64,000 bases of DNA from Bolinopsis microptera (Eukaryota; Ctenophora; Tentaculata; Lobata; Bolinopsidae), in NCBI RefSeq assembly GCF_026151205.1, contig NC_087084.1, positions 9,048,894-9,112,893 of the forward strand, in the 5' to 3' direction. Positions 21,989 through 45,681 of the stretch are shown here, one piece after another (position 1 is the stretch's first letter; each line of letters starts with the position of its first letter). A program made the translations under genes and the position numbers. The notes beneath the pieces were generated by a model. It saw only the letters and a program-made list of their open reading frames with translations, was not told where the DNA came from and ran no database searches.

Positions 21989-24788
21989 TCACCTGTTCAC
22001 GTTAAATGTGATGTCAAGGATGTCGCTGACATCAAGTATACTGTATTTGTACAGAATACTAGGTCGGTCTTTCAGAAGCTTTCTGAATTTACTCTTCAGG
22101 AGTCTGTCATTATAACATCTTGAAAGAAGTGTCCTATAAAGGGTGTTGGTAGAACACAGAAAAGAATCAAGGTCAGAGATAATGGAAGAGTAACGAAGGA
22201 CCTGACCGTAAAAAACATTATAACCAACAGAAGAGGAAATATTACTGTTAGGAAAGGTGTACATGACCACAGGAAAGTTGAAGTCATCAAGTTTGTTGTA
22301 AAGCTTGGTGGCGACGTGTCCGGAGTTATTCATCGAGATGTTGATGTCGAGATAGTTTACGGACTTATTGTCGTCACCACTCCTCTCCATAAGCAGGTCA
22401 GGTGGATAAATGGACCTGATTAGGTTAGAGAAATGCAAATAGTTCATGGTGTTGAGGTCGTCGACATATCTGCAGTTTCTTGAGAGGAGCTTAGCGAGAC
22501 CGAACTTCTTTTCTTTGATTAGGCGTGTCATGTAGTTGAATTCACACTTCCCTAGCGAAAGATCAGCGAACTGGCTACTAGAATTCCCTCCCATGGGAAT
22601 GCCTTTCGTTTGTCTTAAAATCTGATCCCCAAAACAAACAAAAGTGTTAAACAGAATAAATGTAATAGCTGTTTTGAGTTTATCAGCAGAAAAACATAAG
22701 TATCCGTTATATTCCTTTTTAGAGAAAAAATTGTTGTTCTTATACAGAGAAACACAAATAAATTTATTCGTATTACTAAAGAGGAGATCTATTAGCTCGA
22801 AAAGCAGTGACTGTACAACCTGAAGGTCTAGATTGGTATACAGAGTGGTAAAGTCGTATACCTGCATATTAAAAATCTCTAGTCTAGGCAGCCTTTCCAG
22901 GAACTGTTTAGAGCTGTTAATGCTCCAGTCGCAGTTAATTCCAGTATTGTTGTAGATAGAGTTGCAGTATTTGGAAAAGTATTCTTTTAAAACTTTTAAA
23001 GCTTTGTTGACTACAACTGATATCTGCTTAGTGGTACATTTACTGGCCCCAGCTATAAATCTAGACTTATAAGGATTCTTGTGAAGTTTAGGAATCCAAA
23101 AGATTCTCGGTAGACAAAGGTTGTCCTCGGAAACACGAATATTAAAGTTATCTTTAATGAAGTTCACATGTTCCTGAATAATATCATCCTCTACAGAGTT
23201 AACCGGATGATAAGTAGAATTGCCACGACACTCTAGAGAAGTGAGATCGTAGCCAAGTTCGTTGAGAAGGGTTAAAAGATAAAACTTCTTGCAGACAAAA
23301 ACATAATTATTTGAAGCTTTATCTACGGAGCAAATAATAAAAGAAGAAGAAAGACTGTCGAGATAAGATTTAACATCATCCCTTTGTAGAATGGAATTGT
23401 AGGGAGTGAAGTTATTAGGGGAGGAGGAGAGGAAGTTAAGGCGATTGGTGAAGATCCGGGAGACCTCATCTTTCCAATCCTGGAATTCCAAACATGAAAG
23501 TCCATGCTTCCTAGCCATACGGGTGGCGAAGTTGGCTGAACACTCGTTGAGGCTCTCCAAGATTTGCTCAGGAGGAACAGACACAGGTTCCCTAAATTTG
23601 GTACCGTAACTCATGATGCCTCTTAAATCCTCGTGCTCAATGAAAGCAAGGTCACCGGTGATGATGTGGCCTCGAGGCTGATAGCAATAAGGGTTACTGG
23701 AACAGGGGCAATCACCTTCCAGGATGGAGGAAATAGTAGTATTATCAAGTGATTTAAGGAATCTATTATAATTAAAAAGCTTACGCCCGACAGGAATATC
23801 GTACTTATAGTAAACTTTTAAGGGAAGGAAAGGCGTAAGGTTTGGAGGGAGAAGAGTCAAGATCCTAGAGTCACGAATGACTGATTCTATTCGGAGTTTA
23901 TCAAATATTTTAGAACAATAGTGAAAAGTGATAAACTCGCTATTAACAGAGGTGATATTAGGAGAAGAAGTGCTGTCTTGGCCAGCAAAAGATTGTATAA
24001 CAAGGAAAATGGCTCCAGATTTGCAGAGGGAATGAGAGCTAAGTTGCTTGAGCTCGCCTTTTTGAAGGCTACTTATATCTTTATAAAAGCTGTATTTGCT
24101 TTCAGACATTTTTCTTTTTAAACTTTCATATTTATTGTCAATCTCTCTTAAAGTGAGAGTCCTTTTGTATATTCTATCTTCATGGCTTTTGTTTTTCTTT
24201 TTTCTGCCATGTCCTCTTTTATATCTTTTTATTTTATTTTTAAAATAAATATCGTTAAAGTTGCTTTTAGAAATATTACCAGAACCTTTTATGTTGTCAT
24301 TGAGACCTAGAGGGTGAGCAGTGCTCAGGAGATTAATCCAAAGAAGTTCCCTGTCAGCTAAGGCCAGACGAGGGTCTTCAGTAGAGGAAGGGTCAATAAA
24401 ATCAGTAATTTGAATGGAGGCGTCATGAAAATTATGACCGGGAGTATTAAAGTGGTCATGGACAAAGGAGGATTTGCCGGCTTTAACCGAAGCACGGTGT
24501 CCATTCATGCGTTCATTAAGGCGCTGTTCTGTGAGCCCAACATATTGAATACCACAAGAACAAGTGAGGAGATAGATAATAGAAGAAGATTTACAAGAAA
24601 AGGATTCAGAGTGAGTTAACATGAAAGAATTATTAGTAACGTAACTGGTGAAAATATTACTTGACCTGAATGGTTTACAGGTGAGACATCTTGACTTATT
24701 ACACGGTGTTATATCAGGGGAAATAATACTGTTGGGATGAATCCAAGTGTTGGATGTGATGTTATATATTTTATTTCCTTTCTTAAGT
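21989..24788 (-). CDS. Penelope-like protein: N-terminal GIY-YIG nuclease plus reverse transcriptase
   Basis: The first methionine of the long frame is at 24,622 (877 codons), but the same frame is open to about 24,788 and includes ITPCNKSRCLTCKPF, the Cys motif that precedes the nuclease in this group, so the true start may be upstream. Order: Cys cluster; GIY-YIG domain (IIYLLTCSCGIQYVGLT, then LNERMNGHR); a lysine-rich linker (KRYKRGHGRKKKNKSHEDR); the long N-domain; RT with FWIPKLHKNPYKSRFIAG, YDFTTLYTNL, GIPMGGNSSSQFADL and the RYVDDLN active site. Canonical Penelope puts GIY-YIG at the C-terminus; the permuted N-terminal arrangement is the described Naiad clade. Confidence 0.8.
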
Positions 24789-37394: not shown

Positions 37395-40300
37395 GACATT
37401 CTCTGCTGGTGCAGCTCCGTTCAGCTCTGATTTGCAGTTCCTGTGCTTTTTTCTAGAAGTTCCTCGAACATCATCCTCTGTCATTGCTGGTTCAAGTACA
37501 CTTATGAGGCGAAATTGTTAATTCACCCTACTTTTTTGTTGGTAAACAACGGTAAATAAGCCATTCAGAAAATGTAGTCTCCCCGAGGTAGGGAAAAAAT
37601 GAGAAAAGCCACGAATGAATTTTAGATGCATAATTACGGTGTATCAACTATACCTGATTGTTGTTGCAGGTTTCTTCTTAAGCAGCGAGCTCTTTAGGCA
37701 GTTCTCCTCACGAGATACTGTGGGACTTGTACTCTTCCTCCACTTCAGCATCAGCTTCTCTCAACGCTCAGGTTCTTATGATGCAGCACGCAAGCGCTAA
37801 GATGAGGCAATGTCACGGGGTGTTGTGATCGTCCACGTGACATGGTAGATGTCACGTGGTGTGATAACGTCACGTGGTATTATGGGGCTCTCTCTCTTGT
37901 CCACCATAACCGTGTTCGTAGCTCTTCGAAGCACAGTAAAATAATGAAGGTTGATATCACATTCAGCAGCCCGATTGGAGCTGAACATGCTTATTGTAAG
38001 CCAGGTGTCAGTGGGGTGAGGAGTATTGATAACTCATCATCCAATACTCCAGGCGGAGTCCACTTGACATAATAATTGACGACACGCCGAGATTGTTGAT
38101 GACGCCATTACTTCAACCCCACAACTTTCCCTTACCTTAAGTTGAGACATAGTCCCTCTGAAACTTGTTCTCCGCAACCTGCACTGCTGTTTCTGGCCGT
38201 GCTTTGGTCCAAAAAGTTTGCCTTCTCTCTGTTCTCTTCGTAGGCTCCGTGCTGCTGCAGCAACTCGTTTATATTAAGCATCGACTCAACCTGACACAAT
38301 AATAAAAATTAGGTCAAGTTTTTATACAGCATGCCGCACAAGTGTAAAGTTGTACCAACCTAATGCAAATTTCATAAAGTTTTTGGGAGCTTATGTTCTG
38401 GTCATTGTAGTGAATATGATGTATAGTGTCGTTCGATGTGGGTTTTAATTAATTAATTTTACTTAATATATTATTACGGGATTACGATAAAAAATACAAT
38501 GGGATATCTAAGCAGCAAAGCAATTATTAGAAGTCCTGGACAATTTAATCTTAAGTTTATTACACACTGTTCATGTTTTCAACACATACGGATAATTTTT
38601 CACAAAAGAAATAATTGAGCAAATTACCCGAATCTACACAAAATAGGCCATGTCAATAAAATCTAGAAATAAACCCACCCTTGCTTTCTTTCTCTCAATA
38701 GTTTTAGTAAGTTGTTCGTTTTCCTGTTCCATCTGCTGTATATCCTTCTTGATATCCGCAGCCGTGTACTGATTACTCTTTAACTTGTCTGTAGCTTTGT
38801 GGACTGTTTTGAACTCTTCCAGTAGTTCGATATACTGGGGGGAACAGTGTTACAGAGATTACATCGTGGTGTGTCAGTGTTCAAACACAATGTAATGTTT
38901 TATAATCGGATATATGAGAATTATGAAGTTGCAACGGTGTCAGCAGATTATCCAAAGAACAAGAGTATTTTTTTCTTCACGCAAATAGCATTACGGGTAG
39001 AAATTTTAAGATGACACCAAAGCAGCAAGTACAATTTGTACACGATGTTTTTTCAACTTAATATCTGTATATAATAATTCTAAATAAACTCACCTCCGTA
39101 TTTATCTTCTCTACTTCATCGTCTTGCAAGATTTCCTCAGGAACCTCTACTTTCACCAAATACCTGGGTTATTCAGTTGATTAATAAGCTAATTTATAAT
39201 TACAAATACTTCAATCCAATTAATAAATTTCCATGATAGGTTTGTTAAATATAAGAATTTGTATGTACTAAATTTCACTAATGGACGATCAAAAAGTTTA
39301 ATTCATATCCATTAAAAATCAAACTATGTGACGAAAACATCGGTCGTTTACTTTAGAATAGTGTCAATAAAGCCGATGATTATAATATTATAATTGTTTG
39401 TGAATCTTACTAAGTAAACAACTGGTAATATTGTATACTTGTGAACATCACAGTTTAAATGTCGTCTACATTTCCCGCTCAGTAATCTATTGAGGAGATT
39501 TACCAAGGTCTACTGCAGACGAAACAATATTCAGAAATCTTAACATTTATTCTGACTATACCCCTACAGAACTTTATAAAATAATACAACACAAAATATA
39601 TGCTAATATAAATAGCAAAGAAAGCTAACCTGCCAAGATAAGCTCTAGTCTTGAGTCCCTCCACGTTTTGTAACACCCAAACTAGAGTCTGATACAACAC
39701 ACTCTTCTCACCCGTAATAATACCCGCCTGAAGGTTAAACGGTTAAATTTCTTTTGAAGTTTAATTTCATTTGAAATTTAAATGTGAAATTTTAATTAGG
39801 ATTTTAATCAAATTTACACAGGAAATTACAGTGGTTGAGTAAGAGAAATCAGAGGAGGAAGAGAATATGATACAAGTGAGGAGGGCAAAGTAGAGATTGA
39901 GTATGCTAAAAGAAAGAGATGAAGGAAGGAAGTGGAGAGGAGAACGAGAAAATAGAAGGAAAAGAAGAGGAGAAAAGAGGAGTTTTTGGCTTTATAATAT
40001 TAACGAACCTGGAACTCCTGAACACTACACTCAGGATTGTACTTCAGAACAGACAAGAACTTCAGCATCCTGTGTGCCATATCTTCTGGGGTTTCTTCTC
40101 TGAGGTCCATCTTGTTCTGCGAGGAAGTTAGTCGTTATAATCAATACGTTGTTTTAAGATTTTCAACATGATTTGGGGTAATATTGAAAGTTGTAGATAA
40201 AATATAAGGCGCTTTTTATTTCCAGAATTGTTTGTGAATCTTACTAAGTAAACAACTGGTAATATTGTATACTTGTGAACATCACAGTTTAAATGTCGTC

Positions 40301-40555
40301 TACATTTCCCGCTCAGTACTCTATTGAGGAGATTTACCAAGGTCTACTGCAGACGAAACTTCAACATTAATGGAAAACATCAGTCTTAGAAATTCAAATA
40401 AAATCCTCACCCTCGAGTCGATATAAGCGAAGACATCGTTCAGCACTTGAAGAAGTTGGAGGGGTTCTAAGTTGTCGAAGCTGATGATATTAAAGGGTTT
40501 GTTTGAATGTTGCCTTACTGAGGATGTCGATGATCGACTTAACTTGCTCGGCCAT
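37395..40555 (-). CDS. IFT81: IFT81, intraflagellar transport protein 81 (partial, frameshifted)
   Basis: IFT81 is an IFT-B core subunit that carries tubulin into cilia. Clear exons: 40,411-40,555 (MAEQVKSIIDILSKATFKQ, then PFNIISFDNLEPLQLLQVLN), 40,009-40,116, 39,630-39,727, 39,094-39,163 and 38,679-38,834, all GT-AG and, for exons 2-5, in agreeing frame. They match the N-terminal calponin-homology-like domain (LKYNP, VLYQTLVWVLQN, RAYLGRYLVKVEVP) and the start of the coiled coil. Later exons 38,136-38,290, about 37,650-37,790 and about 37,395-37,520 are recognisable (AAARSLRREQREGK; VEEEYKSHSIS, ELPKELAA; LEPAMTEDDVR, KAQELQIRAE) only by switching frame several times. Exon 1 also has one extra base (AAACAAACCC). 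It is either decaying or the assembly has single-base errors. The 3' end is not found. The ATG is 4 bases after TTTATCTAG, a splice-acceptor-like site. Confidence 0.75.
39392..39525. repeat. 134-bp direct duplication in IFT81 introns, copy 1
   Basis: Nearly identical to 40,226-40,359 (both begin AATTGTTTGTGAATCTTACT and end TACTGCAGACGAAAC). Copy 1 is in the intron after exon 3, copy 2 in the intron after exon 1. Confidence 0.85.
40226..40359. repeat. 134-bp direct duplication in IFT81 introns, copy 2
   Basis: Partner of 39,392-39,525, about one mismatch apart. No flanking duplication or terminal inverted repeats recognised. Confidence 0.85.
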
Positions 40556-40561
40556 GGTCCT
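40556..40561 (-). promoter_or_regulatory. Splice-acceptor-like site just before IFT81 ATG
   Basis: TTTATCTAG followed by GACC and the ATG. It may accept a spliced leader or close a 5'-UTR intron. Confidence 0.45.
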
Positions 40562-40599
40562 AGATAAAGCTGTTTCATCGTTAAAGAAATGTTATCACA

Positions 40600-41479
40600 G
40601 AAAAGGGCGGGGCAAGGGCTGGCATGGGCATGAGGCTAATCACTTTTCAATCACAAAACTTTGCATGAGTACGACATGGACACCACTTGCAATTTGCATC
40701 ACAAACTTTATATGTTTCACATTTTTATAGTTGCCCATTTAATCGCGAAGGGATGCATGGTTTTCATGTTAACAATGTAAAAATACGAGTTCAATTAAAA
40801 ATAGATCATTCAAATTTAGCAAACGTATAACTGAACTTTAAATTACATCAAGCTTTACACAAAATTAATAATCCATATTTAGGTCGTTCGTAATAGCTAT
40901 TACTGTTCAAACAAAGTATAGCATAATAAGGTCAATAAGAGAAATGAACCACAAACTGAAGCCGCACCGATCAAAACCAACCAACCAAGGGAGGAGCTGA
41001 TAGAGGTCTTTTTAAAACAAGGGCTCTCGCCGTAGATAACATGTTTTTTTAAATGTAAGTAAAATAAACATTCAATAAATAAATCAACATTTTTAACCCT
41101 CTGGCAGCGGTGGATATGATGGGTAGTAGGTAGGCAGATATCAATCTATTTTTTTCGGGGGGGTTTTTAAATTTTAGAACTACCTGAAAATTAACAGAAT
41201 TGTTAAAAACGTTTGATTTGAGGATCGTCATGTTTTAAACCTCCTCCCCCTCTGTAATCAGTTTTACACATAGCTATTGTGTTGAAATTACACTATTACT
41301 AGAGTATTCGTTTAGAAACCCCCTTCCACCCCCTCGGTGATTACGTAATATATGAACAACCCCTAATCAGTGGGCTGGAAGATTATTATTTACATATTAA
41401 TGGAGTTACTTTTCTATCAGTTTTAAATGTGATGTGGGATTGAAGTGCTATGGTAGAGAAGATGACAAGGATAACTTAC
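40600..41479. other. OST4-IFT81 intergenic or intronic stretch
   Basis: Should hold the missing second exon of OST4. I see no clean one: a phrase after TTTGTTTGAACAG at about 40,908 (minus) reads GTAATAGCTATTAC, which only resembles the expected VxxYHY helix end if bases were lost. Confidence 0.3.
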
Positions 41480-41542
41480 CATGGCAAACAAAACGACCCC
41501 AAGAGAGTTACACATCATAGCGAGCTGTAAGTCTGCAACCAT
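41480..41542 (-). CDS. OST4: OST4, oligosaccharyltransferase subunit 4, first exon
   Basis: OST4 is a ~37-residue single-span membrane peptide of the ER oligosaccharyltransferase that adds N-glycans. The exon encodes MVADLQLAMMCNSLGVVLFA plus M, matching the family N-terminus (human [20 protein letters not shown]). It is followed by a perfect donor ATG|GTAAGT, so the remaining ~15 residues are on another exon not found here. A strong acceptor (TTTCATTTTCCAG) lies 12 bases before the ATG. It starts about 210 bp after the RPL9 stop on the same strand. Confidence 0.75.
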
Positions 41543-41773
41543 GACGCTATAATACTGGAAAATGAAAGAGTTTTATTGAGGGACAACATTATCAAAAAAT
41601 TAAATTCAGTGGTTCTGCATAACATTTGGATTTAGGGGAAGAAATCCATTTTGAGCGTAGGTTGATTCACAATTTTTTACGCTCTTGAGCGTTTTCGAGC
41701 AATTTCATATTCAAAAACATCATTCAGTAAAACAATTATTATTTTAGAATAAATAAAAATATCCCAAATTTAG

Positions 41774-42343
41774 TTATTCCTCAGCTAACTCTTGGATAAA
41801 GGTCTTCTCAGAAACATAAACACCGTCCAAAAATTTACGAATGTCCTTGTTTTTGACGGTTGTGGATTGCTGGATGAGGGCTGCTGATCTGCTGACATTT
41901 TCCACATCGTTTCCTTCCACCATAATCTCATCTTTGTTACCGGTGGACTTGCACGTAACTCCGGGGAGGAGATTTACACGTCGCACGAATTTCTCACCCA
42001 AGAAATTGTGCACCTCGACGTGAGTGTTGTCGTTGATAATGTTGATGTTGATGGGGAAATGAGCGTAGACAGATTTCATCTTGTACTTATAGCCCTGTTG
42101 GACACCAATAAACATATTGTTGATGTGAGAGCAGATGGTTCGGACGCAGGCGACTGCTTTCCTGTTGGGGAAATGCACTTTGATGTCGATGGATTTTTTC
42201 AGCAGGATCAGCTCGCATTGTAAATGTTTGAAGCTCTTCTTGAGACTTCCACGGGGGCCGTCAACTGTGACAATTCGCCTGTCAATCTTTACCGAGCAAC
42301 CATCCGGTATCTTGACCGTGTCACCGGCGTGGATCAACTTCAT
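41774..42343 (-). CDS. RPL9: Ribosomal protein L9 (uL6)
   Basis: Large-subunit ribosomal protein of the cytosol, 189 residues (family about 190). Starts MKLIHAGDTVKIPDGCSVKI at 42,343; the open frame extends 33 codons upstream, but those do not match the family and cross an acceptor site. Family landmarks: DGPRGSLKKSF, VRTICSHINNMFIGV, YKYKMKSVYAHFPIN, NFLGEKFVRRV, then SAALIQQSTTVKNKDIRKFL and DGVYVSEK. The coding part has no introns. CACCCAG|CC precedes the ATG. It begins 245 bp after the RPL11 stop on the same strand. The N-terminal half is more divergent than in most animals. Confidence 0.95.
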   Translation of the reverse strand: MKLIHAGDTVKIPDGCSVKIDRRIVTVDGPRGSLKKSFKHLQCELILLKKSIDIKVHFPNRKAVACVRTICSHINNMFIGVQQGYKYKMKSVYAHFPININIINDNTHVEVHNFLGEKFVRRVNLLPGVTCKSTGNKDEIMVEGNDVENVSRSAALIQQSTTVKNKDIRKFLDGVYVSEKTFIQELAEE

Positions 42344-42350
42344 GGCTGGG
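42344..42350 (-). promoter_or_regulatory. Splice-acceptor-like site 2 bases before RPL9 ATG
   Basis: Minus strand CTCTCACCACCCAG then CC then ATG, in a 245-bp intergenic gap too short to hold much else. Best explained as a trans-splice acceptor, alternatively a 5'-UTR intron end. Confidence 0.5.
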
Positions 42351-42588
42351 TGGTGAGAGGTTAGATGAATAAACTTGCCAAATTGTGCGATATCATTCAA
42401 TACAGAATTGTAAGATCCAAAAAAAATCAATTTACATAACACTAAAATTTTTCATTTTCAATGCCAATGATCATCATTGAGATTTGATAAATTGAATGAC
42501 ACCATTAAATTTAATTAAAATTTCATGGTAGACTGACTCAATAAAGCAAAAGAAATTCCAGAATAAATAAAAATCCATTTAAAAATTA

Positions 42589-43119
42589 TTAGGTTTTCTT
42601 GTTCGTTAAGATGCCGTCAAATTTGGTCTGGAACCACTTCTTGGCTTCTTCCTTGCCGACCTTGTGCTTGGTTCCGATCCTGGAGTTCTTGGCGCGTCTG
42701 TATCTAACTCTGTATCCGGGTCTACCCAGAACTACATAAAAGTCCATACCATAGATACCAATGCTGGGATCGTACTTAATTCCCAAGTCGATATGCTCGT
42801 CAATACCGAAGCCGAAGTTACCCTCCTCAGAGAAACATCCCTTCCACAGCTCGTATTCCTTGACTTTGAGGCCACGCTCGAGGATCTCCTCTGCTTTGGC
42901 GCCACGGACGGTGCACCAACATGAGATTTTCTCGTTACGTCTGATACCGAAAGATCTGACAGTGAAGCGAGCTTTGGAGAAGCAAGGCTCCTGACCGGAC
43001 AGCTGTTCCAGGACCTTAGCGGCACGGGTCAGTCTGTCACCAGATTCTCCTACACAGATGTTCAGGCACAGCTTGGTGATGCTGATATCCTTCATGGGGT
43101 TCTTCTTCTCAGCCGCCAT
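42589..43119 (-). CDS. RPL11: Ribosomal protein L11 (uL5)
   Basis: Large-subunit protein that contacts 5S rRNA, 176 residues (family 172-178). Starts [20 protein letters not shown]; landmarks [97 protein letters not shown]. No introns in the coding part. TTTGTTTCAG|TC stands immediately before the ATG. An ATTAAA-type poly(A) signal (plus TTTAAT near 42,509) lies in the gap to RPL9. First gene of the proposed RPL11-RPL9-OST4-IFT81 transcription unit. Confidence 0.97.
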
Positions 43120-43130
43120 GACTGAAACAA
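43120..43130 (-). promoter_or_regulatory. Splice-acceptor-like site 2 bases before RPL11 ATG
   Basis: Minus strand AACTTATTTGTTTCAG|TC then ATG: a pyrimidine tract and CAG of consensus quality. Confidence 0.5.
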
Positions 43131-44076: not shown

Positions 44077-44722
44077 CTACATAGAATTAATAGCACGCTC
44101 GTAAATTGCCAGTTCTTTGGCAGCAAATGCTTTCTGTTTATCAGCATCCTTTTCATTCTTGCAGTAGTCATTGATTTTGTCAGTTGTTATTTTACCAAGC
44201 ACTTTTCGGGCACCGTCACGTTTCTCTTCACGGGCCTCATACAGCTGGTACAGTACCTGCAAATGTAGGGTTGGTGAAGCTACTTTAACAACTGAACAGT
44301 TCAAAATTTAGAGGCATTTTATGTTGGCTGCTTAATAAATGCATACTGGCGAAGGAATGATAAGACATGGGCTGGGTTGACCTTATAACAAGTAGAATTT
44401 AAACCCATGTTTTTTAGAGCAAATGGGTAATTCTGATGAAAAATTAAGGCACCACCTTTGGACCAAATTGTACAATTTTCTGGGCCTCTATTCTGAACCT
44501 TGTACCAAGATTTTAGTCTGTAATAGGAGAGCACAATCTTAATTTGATTTACTTTCCTTAATCCGAATTCAGTAGACTTACTTGAGCAACAGTCAAAGTG
44601 TTGAAGAATTGAAGTCCTTTCTCTCCATAGTTCTCAGTTGCAAAATTTCCCAGTTTATCAACAAGCCTGCCCTGATGTGTATCTCCGAGTATGTTGTGAA
44701 GGAAGTTTGACGTTTCGGACAT
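44077..44722 (-). CDS. Small conserved-looking protein of unknown function, two exons
   Basis: Exons 44,582-44,722 and 44,077-44,256 (donor CAA|GTAAGT, acceptor ACATTTGCAG, phase 0) give 106 residues: MSETSNFLHNILGDTHQGRL..., then VLYQLYEAREEKRDGARKVL..., ending YERAINSM. Helical, charged, no signal peptide or membrane span, so probably cytosolic. I do not recognise the family. An acceptor-like CTTCTTAACATCAG lies 9 bases before the ATG, like the downstream ribosomal genes. Clean splice sites and a full frame make it a likely real gene. Confidence 0.65.
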
Positions 44723-44732
44723 TATGAAATTC

Positions 44733-45681
44733 TGATGTTAAGAAGTTCAGTTAGAAAATTTCTTCAGAATTCTCACCAAATACTTAAAATATAGGAAAAT
44801 ACAGAAAGCTTTGCCGTAATTGGGACTTATGTGGCAGCCAGACCTCGACTCATGTGACTTTAAGCTCAGGAGGGACTTACAGCAAGTGGAATGAGAGTAA
44901 TAAATAAATCATCAGCAAGAGTATCACAAAGTTTAGAGTATCTCAGAGTTTCCATTAGAAGTTAGGCAAATTGGTCAACACAGATTCAGTACAGGTAATC
45001 ATTCTATATTATAATTATTAAATCTAAAATAGCTAATAATTTAATAAATTATTAACAGGCCCCTTAACGTGGGCAATAATATACGCTTTCTATAATGGAA
45101 AAGATGGATGTTACCCATTAACGCACAAGTTAAGACACAGTTTGGTTTATCAAACATGTGGGGTCAAGGATAGAAATCAAGTAATACTTATCAATAGTAT
45201 GAACAAAAACGAACTACCAGAAAAAGCGAACTTTAACAATAGTAAAGCATTCCATCATGTAAATCCTAATATTTTTTGGTTTTGCAATAAGTTTATTTGG
45301 GGGAAAAAAATTTAATTTGGCCCACCCAAGGGCCCTTCTTAATTTGGATAGGATTTTTTAAATTATTCTTAAATTTCTTGGCCTCCTATTTCCCTGGGGG
45401 AATCCAAATTTTTCCAAAAATTGACCCCTTTTTAACAATGATGAAGCAATCTTTTATGTNNNNNNNNNNNNNNNNNNNNNNNNNNNNNNNNNNNNNNNNN
45501 NNNNNNNNNNNNNNNNNNNNNNNNNNNNNNNNNNNNNNNNNNNNNNNNNNNNNNNNNNNAAAGAAATATCAGACTCGCTTATGTTAAAGAAATATCAGAC
45601 TTAGCAGTAGGAACTGTAGGGGTAAGACATATTTTCAAAAGCAGTAGTTAGTTAACATAATCGGAGTACAATGAGTCTAAC
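44733..45681. other. Intergenic region around an assembly gap
   Basis: No gene recognised. Sequence from about 45,290 to the gap has many doubled letters (GGGGGAAAAAAATTT, CCCTTTTT) unlike the rest and looks like low-quality consensus. The 3' exons of the large cysteine-rich gene should begin here or in the gap. Confidence 0.5.
45460..45559. other. Assembly gap (100 N)
   Basis: Exactly 100 N, a conventional placeholder size, so the true length is unknown. The 3' end of the large gene is probably affected. Confidence 0.99.

What the first reader, a model, noticed from the sequence alone, without database searches (positions are those of the whole stretch)
40411..43130. Candidate spliced-leader operon RPL11-RPL9-OST4-IFT81
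Four unrelated housekeeping or ciliary genes lie head to tail on the minus strand. RPL11 and RPL9 are 245 bp apart; RPL9 and OST4 about 230 bp. Each start codon is preceded within 2, 2, 12 and 4 bases by an acceptor-like site (TTTGTTTCAG, CACCACCCAG, CATTTTCCAG, TTTATCTAG). The small upstream gene has the same arrangement (CATCAG, 9 bases). Short intergenic gaps plus an acceptor just before every ATG is the classic sign of polycistronic transcription resolved by spliced-leader trans-splicing. Linking OST4 and IFT81 to ribosomal proteins in one unit would be an operon content I do not recall described.
Basis: partly seen in the sequence, partly recalled or inferred. Interest (0 to 1): 0.75.

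Follow-up and report, generated by a model that had tools for sequence, protein, structure and literature searches.

The report
Candidate comb-jelly ribosomal-protein operon
In a comb-jelly genome, two ribosomal-protein genes and one or two unrelated genes sit head to tail so closely that they may be made as one long RNA and cut apart by adding a shared leader to each piece; the leader system is really there, but RNA data are still needed to show the shared transcript.

Summary
RPL11, RPL9, OST4 and IFT81 lie head to tail on the minus strand with gaps of 245, 231 and 493 bp. Three of the four have a good acceptor 2-12 bp before the ATG; IFT81's is chance-level. The genome fits the ctenophore Bolinopsis microptera in size, though not in scaffold number (inferred). 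I found its spliced leader: 1528 SL+GT places against 0 in the control and 92 SL RNA-type junctions, mostly in tandem arrays. An intronless uS9/RPS16 retrocopy begins with the last 17 bases of the leader, joined at the parental gene's acceptor 10 bp before the ATG, so a ribosomal-protein mRNA was SL trans-spliced here. Two other loci have a similar layout: RPL13-RPL8-PCBP-PRXL2-MRPL30?-RPL7A and MOCS2-RPL13A. Among 26 ribosomal-protein loci, 3 pairs lie within 20 kb, all on the same strand; 0.05 pairs expected. Co-transcription is not shown. My searches of the held library listed no ctenophore operon report. RPL11-RPL9-OST4 is the likely core; IFT81's membership is weak.

The parts
44077..44722 (-). 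Small upstream gene, two exons, ~106 aa, function unknown; possible but doubtful first cistron (957 bp before RPL11)
   Evidence: Read from sequence; no Pfam match above cut-off
43122..43123 (-). Acceptor AG of RPL11 (TTTGTTTCAG), 2 bp before ATG
   Evidence: 3.0% of control ATGs score as well
42589..43119 (-). RPL11 (uL5) CDS, intronless, 176 aa
   Evidence: only Ribosomal_L5_C match at E <= 0.001 in the genome
42510..42515 (-). ATTAAA, only hexamer of the six-hexamer set scanned in the RPL11-RPL9 gap
42346..42347 (-). Acceptor AG of RPL9 (CACCACCCAG), 2 bp before ATG
   Evidence: 1.4% of control ATGs score as well (11% with the other matrix)
41774..42343 (-). RPL9 (uL6) CDS, intronless, 189 aa
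   Evidence: Ribosomal_L6 4.8e-27
41572..41577 (-). AATAAA, only hexamer of the six-hexamer set scanned in the RPL9-OST4 gap; the OST4 acceptor AG lies 15 nt further on
41555..41556 (-). Acceptor AG of OST4 (CATTTTCCAG), 12 bp before ATG
   Evidence: 0.07% of control ATGs score as well
41480..41542 (-). OST4 exon 1 (MVADLQLAMMCNSLGVVLFAM), phase-0 donor GTAAGT at 41479
   Evidence: (Ost4 E 0.00088, below curated cut-off)
41049..41183 (-). Proposed OST4 exon 2 (VVLKFKNPPEKN...) and stop
   Evidence: exon joining is my reading
40560..40561 (-). Acceptor-like AG of IFT81 (TTTATCTAG), 4 bp before ATG
   Evidence: 26% of control ATGs score as well, so weak
38680..40555 (-). IFT81 5' part (CH-domain exons); frame break in the first exon near 40490

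Best explanation
A spliced-leader operon with RPL11-RPL9-OST4 as its core, IFT81 as a possible last cistron, in a ctenophore (inferred: Bolinopsis microptera). One promoter upstream of RPL11 would drive a polycistronic pre-mRNA. At each acceptor just before an ATG, the exon of the SL RNA (encoded in tandem arrays on C3, C5 and elsewhere on C13) is joined in trans while the upstream cistron is cleaved and polyadenylated. Each mature mRNA would then start with the ~40-nt leader, almost directly followed by the ATG. Shown here: the genes, gaps and acceptor motifs; SL RNA-type genes with a donor and predicted stem-loops; SL joined to a ribosomal-protein mRNA (uS9) ten bases before its ATG; recurrence of co-directional ribosomal-protein clusters. 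Inferred: that RPL11, RPL9, OST4 and IFT81 mRNAs carry the SL, and that they share one precursor.
For: SL: AATTTGAGGT occurs 1690 times against 900 for the reversed control; the 34-mer TTTCAACACTACTATATAACAAATAATTTGAGGT has 1528 places (<=3 mismatches) against 0; by eye it resembles the Hormiphora leader. SL RNA-type junctions: 92 places (27-mer, <=2 mismatches) against 0, arrays on C3 (591-bp period), C5 and C13; folds better than shuffles, z -2.4 to -3.2; an Sm-like AUCUUUUGG or AUAUUUUGG before the 3' stem-loop. uS9 retrocopy: 17-nt SL suffix joined at the parent's acceptor. Layout: gaps 245, 231, 493 bp; acceptor test P 6e-5 for the four genes; the one AATAAA of the RPL9-OST4 gap ends 15 nt before the OST4 acceptor AG, leaving little room for a separate promoter after RPL9's 3' end if that signal is used. 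Similar design elsewhere: RPL13-178 bp-RPL8-333-PCBP-501-PRXL2 ... 373-RPL7A and MOCS2-367-RPL13A. Clustering: 3 pairs among 26 loci within 20 kb, all same strand, 0.05 expected, P 2e-5.
Against: No RNA evidence for any of the four genes. No retrocopy of RPL11, RPL9 or OST4 exon 1 was found that could show the leader on them. Acceptor strength does not mark trans sites well: the uS9 site shown by the retrocopy is matched by 18% of control ATGs, the other 15 genes tested combine to only P 0.04 (16 genes, P 0.06), and RPL13 has no AG within 20 bp of its ATG. OST4-IFT81 is 493 bp and the IFT81 acceptor is chance-level. Gaps of this size could hold a compact promoter. The 3' ends of these mRNAs are not known, so the AATAAA argument is conditional. 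The SL RNA structure has no covariation support (0 of 30 pairs changed on both sides), and the minimum-energy folds pair the Sm-like site. I did no search for opposite-strand genes inside the clusters beyond reading the ORF lists.
Confidence: 0.58

Rival explanations
1. Each gene has its own compact promoter in the gap before it; each pre-mRNA starts with a short outron and is SL trans-spliced on its own. The tight co-directional packing reflects co-expression, not one transcript.
For: In Hormiphora the leader is on at least 56% of Iso-Seq reads, and one paper states that operons had not been reported in ctenophores, so trans-splicing without known operons is the documented state. Gaps of 178 to about 590 bp could hold promoters.
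Against: Ribosomal-protein genes cluster beyond chance, on one strand in each of the 3 pairs found. The only canonical AATAAA of the RPL9-OST4 gap abuts the OST4 acceptor.
Confidence: 0.3
2. No trans-splicing at these genes: ordinary cis-spliced 5'-UTR exons, or unspliced 5' ends with an AG near the ATG by chance.
For: IFT81's site is chance-level, and the 15 other genes tested give only a weak excess (P 0.04).
Against: An uS9 mRNA of this genome carried the SL at an ATG-proximal acceptor. RPL11, RPL9 and OST4 sites score above 97% of control ATGs (RPL9 only above 88%).
Confidence: 0.1
3. A shorter operon, RPL11-RPL9 only or RPL11-RPL9-OST4, with IFT81 independently transcribed from the 493-bp gap.
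For: The third gap exceeds the <250 bp rule used for chaetognath operons; it holds TATAAA and ATTAAA motifs; the IFT81 acceptor is weak.
Against: A verified Hydra operon has an intergenic region of over 400 bp (a 436-bp segment), so 493 bp does not exclude membership.
Confidence: 0.4

Closest known systems
Spliced-leader trans-splicing in ctenophores (Hormiphora, PMC8527503: section 37 and passages read; Derelle et al. 2010 not held)
   Same: Leader of about 40 nt ending AATTTGAG; by eye the leader here is homologous (CTTTCAACACTACTATATAACAAATAATTTGAG against CTTTTCAACACTACTTTAAACAAATTAATTTGAG)
   Different: That section reports leaders on reads and in the genome, and the word operon does not occur in the main text; here SL RNA genes with an intron part, a retrocopied SL-uS9 junction and candidate operons are added
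Hydra RFC140/flp operon (PMC3273482, passages read)
   Same: Head-to-tail genes separated by a few hundred bp and resolved by SL addition
   Different: That one was verified with reporters and has two genes; ours is sequence evidence only, with ribosomal-protein genes
Chaetognath operons (PMC12460157, passages read)
   Same: Genes <250 bp apart, as here for the first two gaps; the longest operon there includes ribosomal-protein genes
   Different: Different phylum with three leaders and RNA support; our third gap is longer
C. elegans SL2 operons (recalled)
   Same: Co-directional housekeeping genes with a downstream acceptor shortly after the upstream poly(A) signal
   Different: I did not identify an operon-specific second leader, nor test for one

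Membership tests
SL-resolved operon | Co-directional adjacent genes | tested here: met
   four of four on the minus strand, plus the small upstream gene
SL-resolved operon | Short intercistronic distance (<250 bp, the chaetognath paper's rule) | tested here: inconclusive
   245 and 231 bp meet it; 493 bp (OST4-IFT81) and 957 bp (small gene-RPL11) do not
SL-resolved operon | The genome encodes an SL RNA | tested here: met
   92 SL RNA-type junctions, 0 in control; donor, predicted stem-loops, Sm-like motif
SL-resolved operon | Trans-splice acceptor before each downstream ATG | tested here: inconclusive
   Good for RPL11, RPL9, OST4; chance-level for IFT81
SL-resolved operon | Leader on the mature mRNAs of these genes | not testable with these tools
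   No RNA data; no retrocopies of RPL11, RPL9 or OST4 exon 1 found. Shown for uS9 only
SL-resolved operon | Polycistronic precursor, no promoter in the gaps | not testable with these tools
   Needs nascent RNA, cap mapping or reporters
Ctenophore spliced-leader RNA | Leader resembling a published ctenophore SL, followed by GT | tested here: met
Ctenophore spliced-leader RNA | Free Sm site flanked by stem-loops with compensatory changes | tested here: inconclusive
   Folding z -2.4 to -3.2, but minimum-energy folds pair the Sm-like site; only 3 near-identical variants and 0 of 30 pairs changed on both sides

The most novel reading that the evidence does not exclude
Probability: 0.5. Interest if true: 0.75.

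Novelty: new member of a known kind. Interest (0 to 1): 0.58.

Why it matters
SL trans-splicing is known in ctenophores, but a 2021 paper states that operons had not been reported there (PMC7986045, passages), and the listings of my searches of the held library show no later report (not every listed paper was opened). Operons in a lineage that may be sister to all other animals bear directly on whether operons followed trans-splicing repeatedly or were present early. The locus gives exact, cheap tests with RNA data that already exist.

Tried and rejected
The Hormiphora leader itself (41 of its 44 bases) has 0 matches within 3 mismatches. A first SL candidate (L021/L022, TTAATTTGAGGT) looked 28/42 identical to the Hormiphora leader by eye, but only 2 places exist within 3 mismatches and by my reading both lie in an open coding frame (FFHHLSDTINLRYF...): rejected. 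The L008 family (5 of the 30 loci) shares a repeat of about 590 bp: rejected. 5S linkage: the SL unit of L094 has no 5S match at E <= 1. SmY was the only Rfam hit overlapping the SL unit, 26 bits against a gathering score of 39, so not claimed. An alignment of SL loci mixed orientations and was discarded. Retrocopies of RPL11/RPL9/OST4 exon 1: none. A matrix from ten CAG acceptors is biased against TAG sites and was replaced by a recalled generic one; both results are reported. One search leaves out one uS12 start (L106) that one search had. For the clustering count I kept one place per locus. Dropped were the three uS9 places on C11, extra eL15/uS15 places on C1, the C9:14.147-Mb uS12 locus, the second eL21 copy, the C209 copy, a C1 eL18 fragment, and further exons of the same genes. 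uS12 counts twice (C8, C9); the intronless C8 copy could itself be a retrocopy. RPL11, RPL9 and RPL13 were not in that count. Not all candidates of those searches were scored (26 of 41 and 23 of 32).
Full report
Genome. The window is C13:9048894-9112893 of a 264.65-Mb assembly in 232 contigs. C1 is 26,206,493 and C11 20,825,282 bases long. This fits the published Bolinopsis microptera values of 265 Mb, largest chromosome 26.2 Mb and N50 20.8 Mb; the same table gives 346 scaffolds, which does not fit the 232 held here (passages of PMC11797021; of PMC10232365). The name is inferred.

Observation. RPL11, RPL9, OST4 and IFT81 are present and head to tail. Gaps are 245, 231 and 493 bp. RPL11 and RPL9 are intronless; OST4 has two exons in my reading, with a Pfam score below the curated cut-off. 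A small gene of unknown function lies 957 bp upstream of RPL11, and a 100-base N run follows at 45460-45559.

Acceptors. Against 9055 control ATGs from 92 fetched loci (L002-L093, some overlapping), the best acceptor within 20 bp is matched by 3.0% (RPL11), 1.4% (RPL9), 0.07% (OST4) and 26% (IFT81); combined P 6e-5. With a matrix from ten cis acceptors the figures are 0.8%, 11%, 1.2% and 48%, combined P 0.002. Fifteen other gene starts, thirteen of them ribosomal proteins, combine to P 0.04; sixteen to P 0.06 with the other matrix. RPL13 has no AG within 20 bp. The uS9 site shown by the retrocopy ranks at 18%, so a weak score does not exclude trans-splicing and a good one does not prove it.

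Spliced leader. Starting from the Hormiphora leader (PMC8527503 section 37), a direct search failed. Its 3' motif AATTTGAG followed by GT is in excess: 1690 against 900 reversed. Three of the 30 loci then fetched (L038, L042, L051) share a leader-like block ending ACTATATAA...ACAAATAATTTGAG; L038 has the full form CTTTCAACACTACTATATAACAAATAATTTGAG, L042 an insertion and L051 a different 5' part. The 34-mer built from it has 1528 places against 0 in the control. In 2 of 30 fetched loci it is followed by GTAAGATTAA and an SL RNA-like body; in 28 of 30 by other bodies. The SL RNA-type junction, searched with its own 27-mer (<=2 mismatches), has 92 places against 0: arrays on C3 (591-bp period), C5 (about 857 bp) and C13, plus a few single copies. 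The three variants fold better than shuffles (z -2.4 to -3.2), with a stable 3' stem-loop preceded by AUCUUUUGG or AUAUUUUGG, a possible Sm site. Against this, the minimum-energy folds pair that site, three variants give no covariation support, and the SmY match of 26 bits is below its gathering score of 39.

Retro-cDNA. On C11 an intronless uS9 copy starts ATAACAAATAATTTGAG|CCGAGAGACGATGGTC; the intron-containing gene on C7 has CTTATTTAG|CCAAGAGACGATGGTC. The exact 17-nt SL suffix ends at the parental acceptor, so an SL-uS9 mRNA was reverse-transcribed (inference from the junction). A second copy has the same 5' end and flank; I count both as one event. The copies lie in a kinase-like gene fragment (by eye).

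Other clusters. Two searches with 26 yeast ribosomal proteins (13 each) gave at least one place for 25 of 26 (eL19 none); I counted 26 loci, uS12 twice. Three pairs lie within 20 kb (uL2-eL8, uL13-uL22, uS11-eL32), all on the same strand; 0.05 expected, P 2e-5. Reading L107 shows RPL13, RPL8, a KH-domain gene that I read as PCBP/hnRNP K-like, a PRXL2/SelU-like gene, an MRPL30-like gene (E 0.075, not established) and RPL7A on one strand in 8.3 kb; gaps by coordinates are 178, 333, 501 and 373 bp, and the PRXL2-MRPL30? gap was not measured. L108 shows an unnamed C-terminus without Pfam match, MOCS2 (MoaE 7.9e-33, frame broken) and RPL13A, gaps about 590 and 367 bp. For comparison, Mnemiopsis has 18,972 genes in 248 Mb in one annotation, about 13 kb per gene, or 26,046 in another.

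Mechanism. The likeliest reading is a polycistronic RNA resolved by SL addition, with a possible RPL9 poly(A) signal AATAAA (41577-41572) just before the OST4 acceptor. This is inference. Individually promoted, individually trans-spliced genes remain the main rival.

Known context. Passages of PMC7986045 say operons had not been reported in ctenophores. Passages of PMC12460157 describe chaetognath operons defined by <250 bp; those of PMC3273482 a verified Hydra operon with an intergenic region of over 400 bp; those of PMC10282587 a leader in a glass sponge. Term searches in the main texts of PMC12221973, PMC10232365, PMC11184263, PMC11797021 and PMC13231562 found no 'operon', 'trans-splic' or 'spliced leader'. 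The listings of searches show no ctenophore operon paper by title or abstract start; not every listed paper was opened, supplements were not read, and most subscription papers are not held.

Verdict. SL trans-splicing in this genome: close to certain. Operon RPL11-RPL9-OST4: more likely than not. IFT81 membership: open.

Noticed in passing
L064-L093: 1528 SL+GT places against 92 SL RNA-type junctions; 28 of 30 fetched copies are leaders joined to other, often repeated bodies with differing 5' flanks. They look like retroelements whose trans-spliced RNAs were copied back with the leader, which may also explain the 718 leader sequences reported in the Hormiphora genome.
   Followed up: partly
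L100, L111 (C11:2210403-2212391): uS9 retrocopy with a partial leader at its 5' end, present twice inside a kinase-like gene fragment.
   Followed up: partly
window 42588-42544 and 41773-41729; L107, L097, L095, L110: TTTATT occurs within 45 nt after the stop codon in 7 of 8 ribosomal-protein genes, 2 of 7 other genes and 3.8% of background windows (470 of 12208; motif chosen after seeing it, and the uS11 and uS12 stretches were shorter); a possible shared 3'-UTR element or variant poly(A) signal.
   Followed up: partly
L107:3620-3622: In-frame TGA in a PRXL2/SelU-like gene (RRPG-TGA-KFCRE), a probable selenocysteine codon.
   Followed up: no
window near 40490; L108 near 820: Frame breaks in IFT81 exon 1 and in MOCS2, probably assembly indels.
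   Followed up: no
C13:12.78-12.95 Mb and 15.242-15.247 Mb: Further SL RNA-type arrays, the first with sequence variants at the leader end and donor; possible second leader types or pseudogenes.
   Followed up: no
window about 40360-40225 and 39525-39390: A nearly identical stretch occurs twice in IFT81 introns, possibly a small mobile element (seen by eye).
   Followed up: no
window 21989-24787: A 932-aa open frame resembling a Penelope-like reverse transcriptase with a GIY-YIG part (by eye).
   Followed up: no
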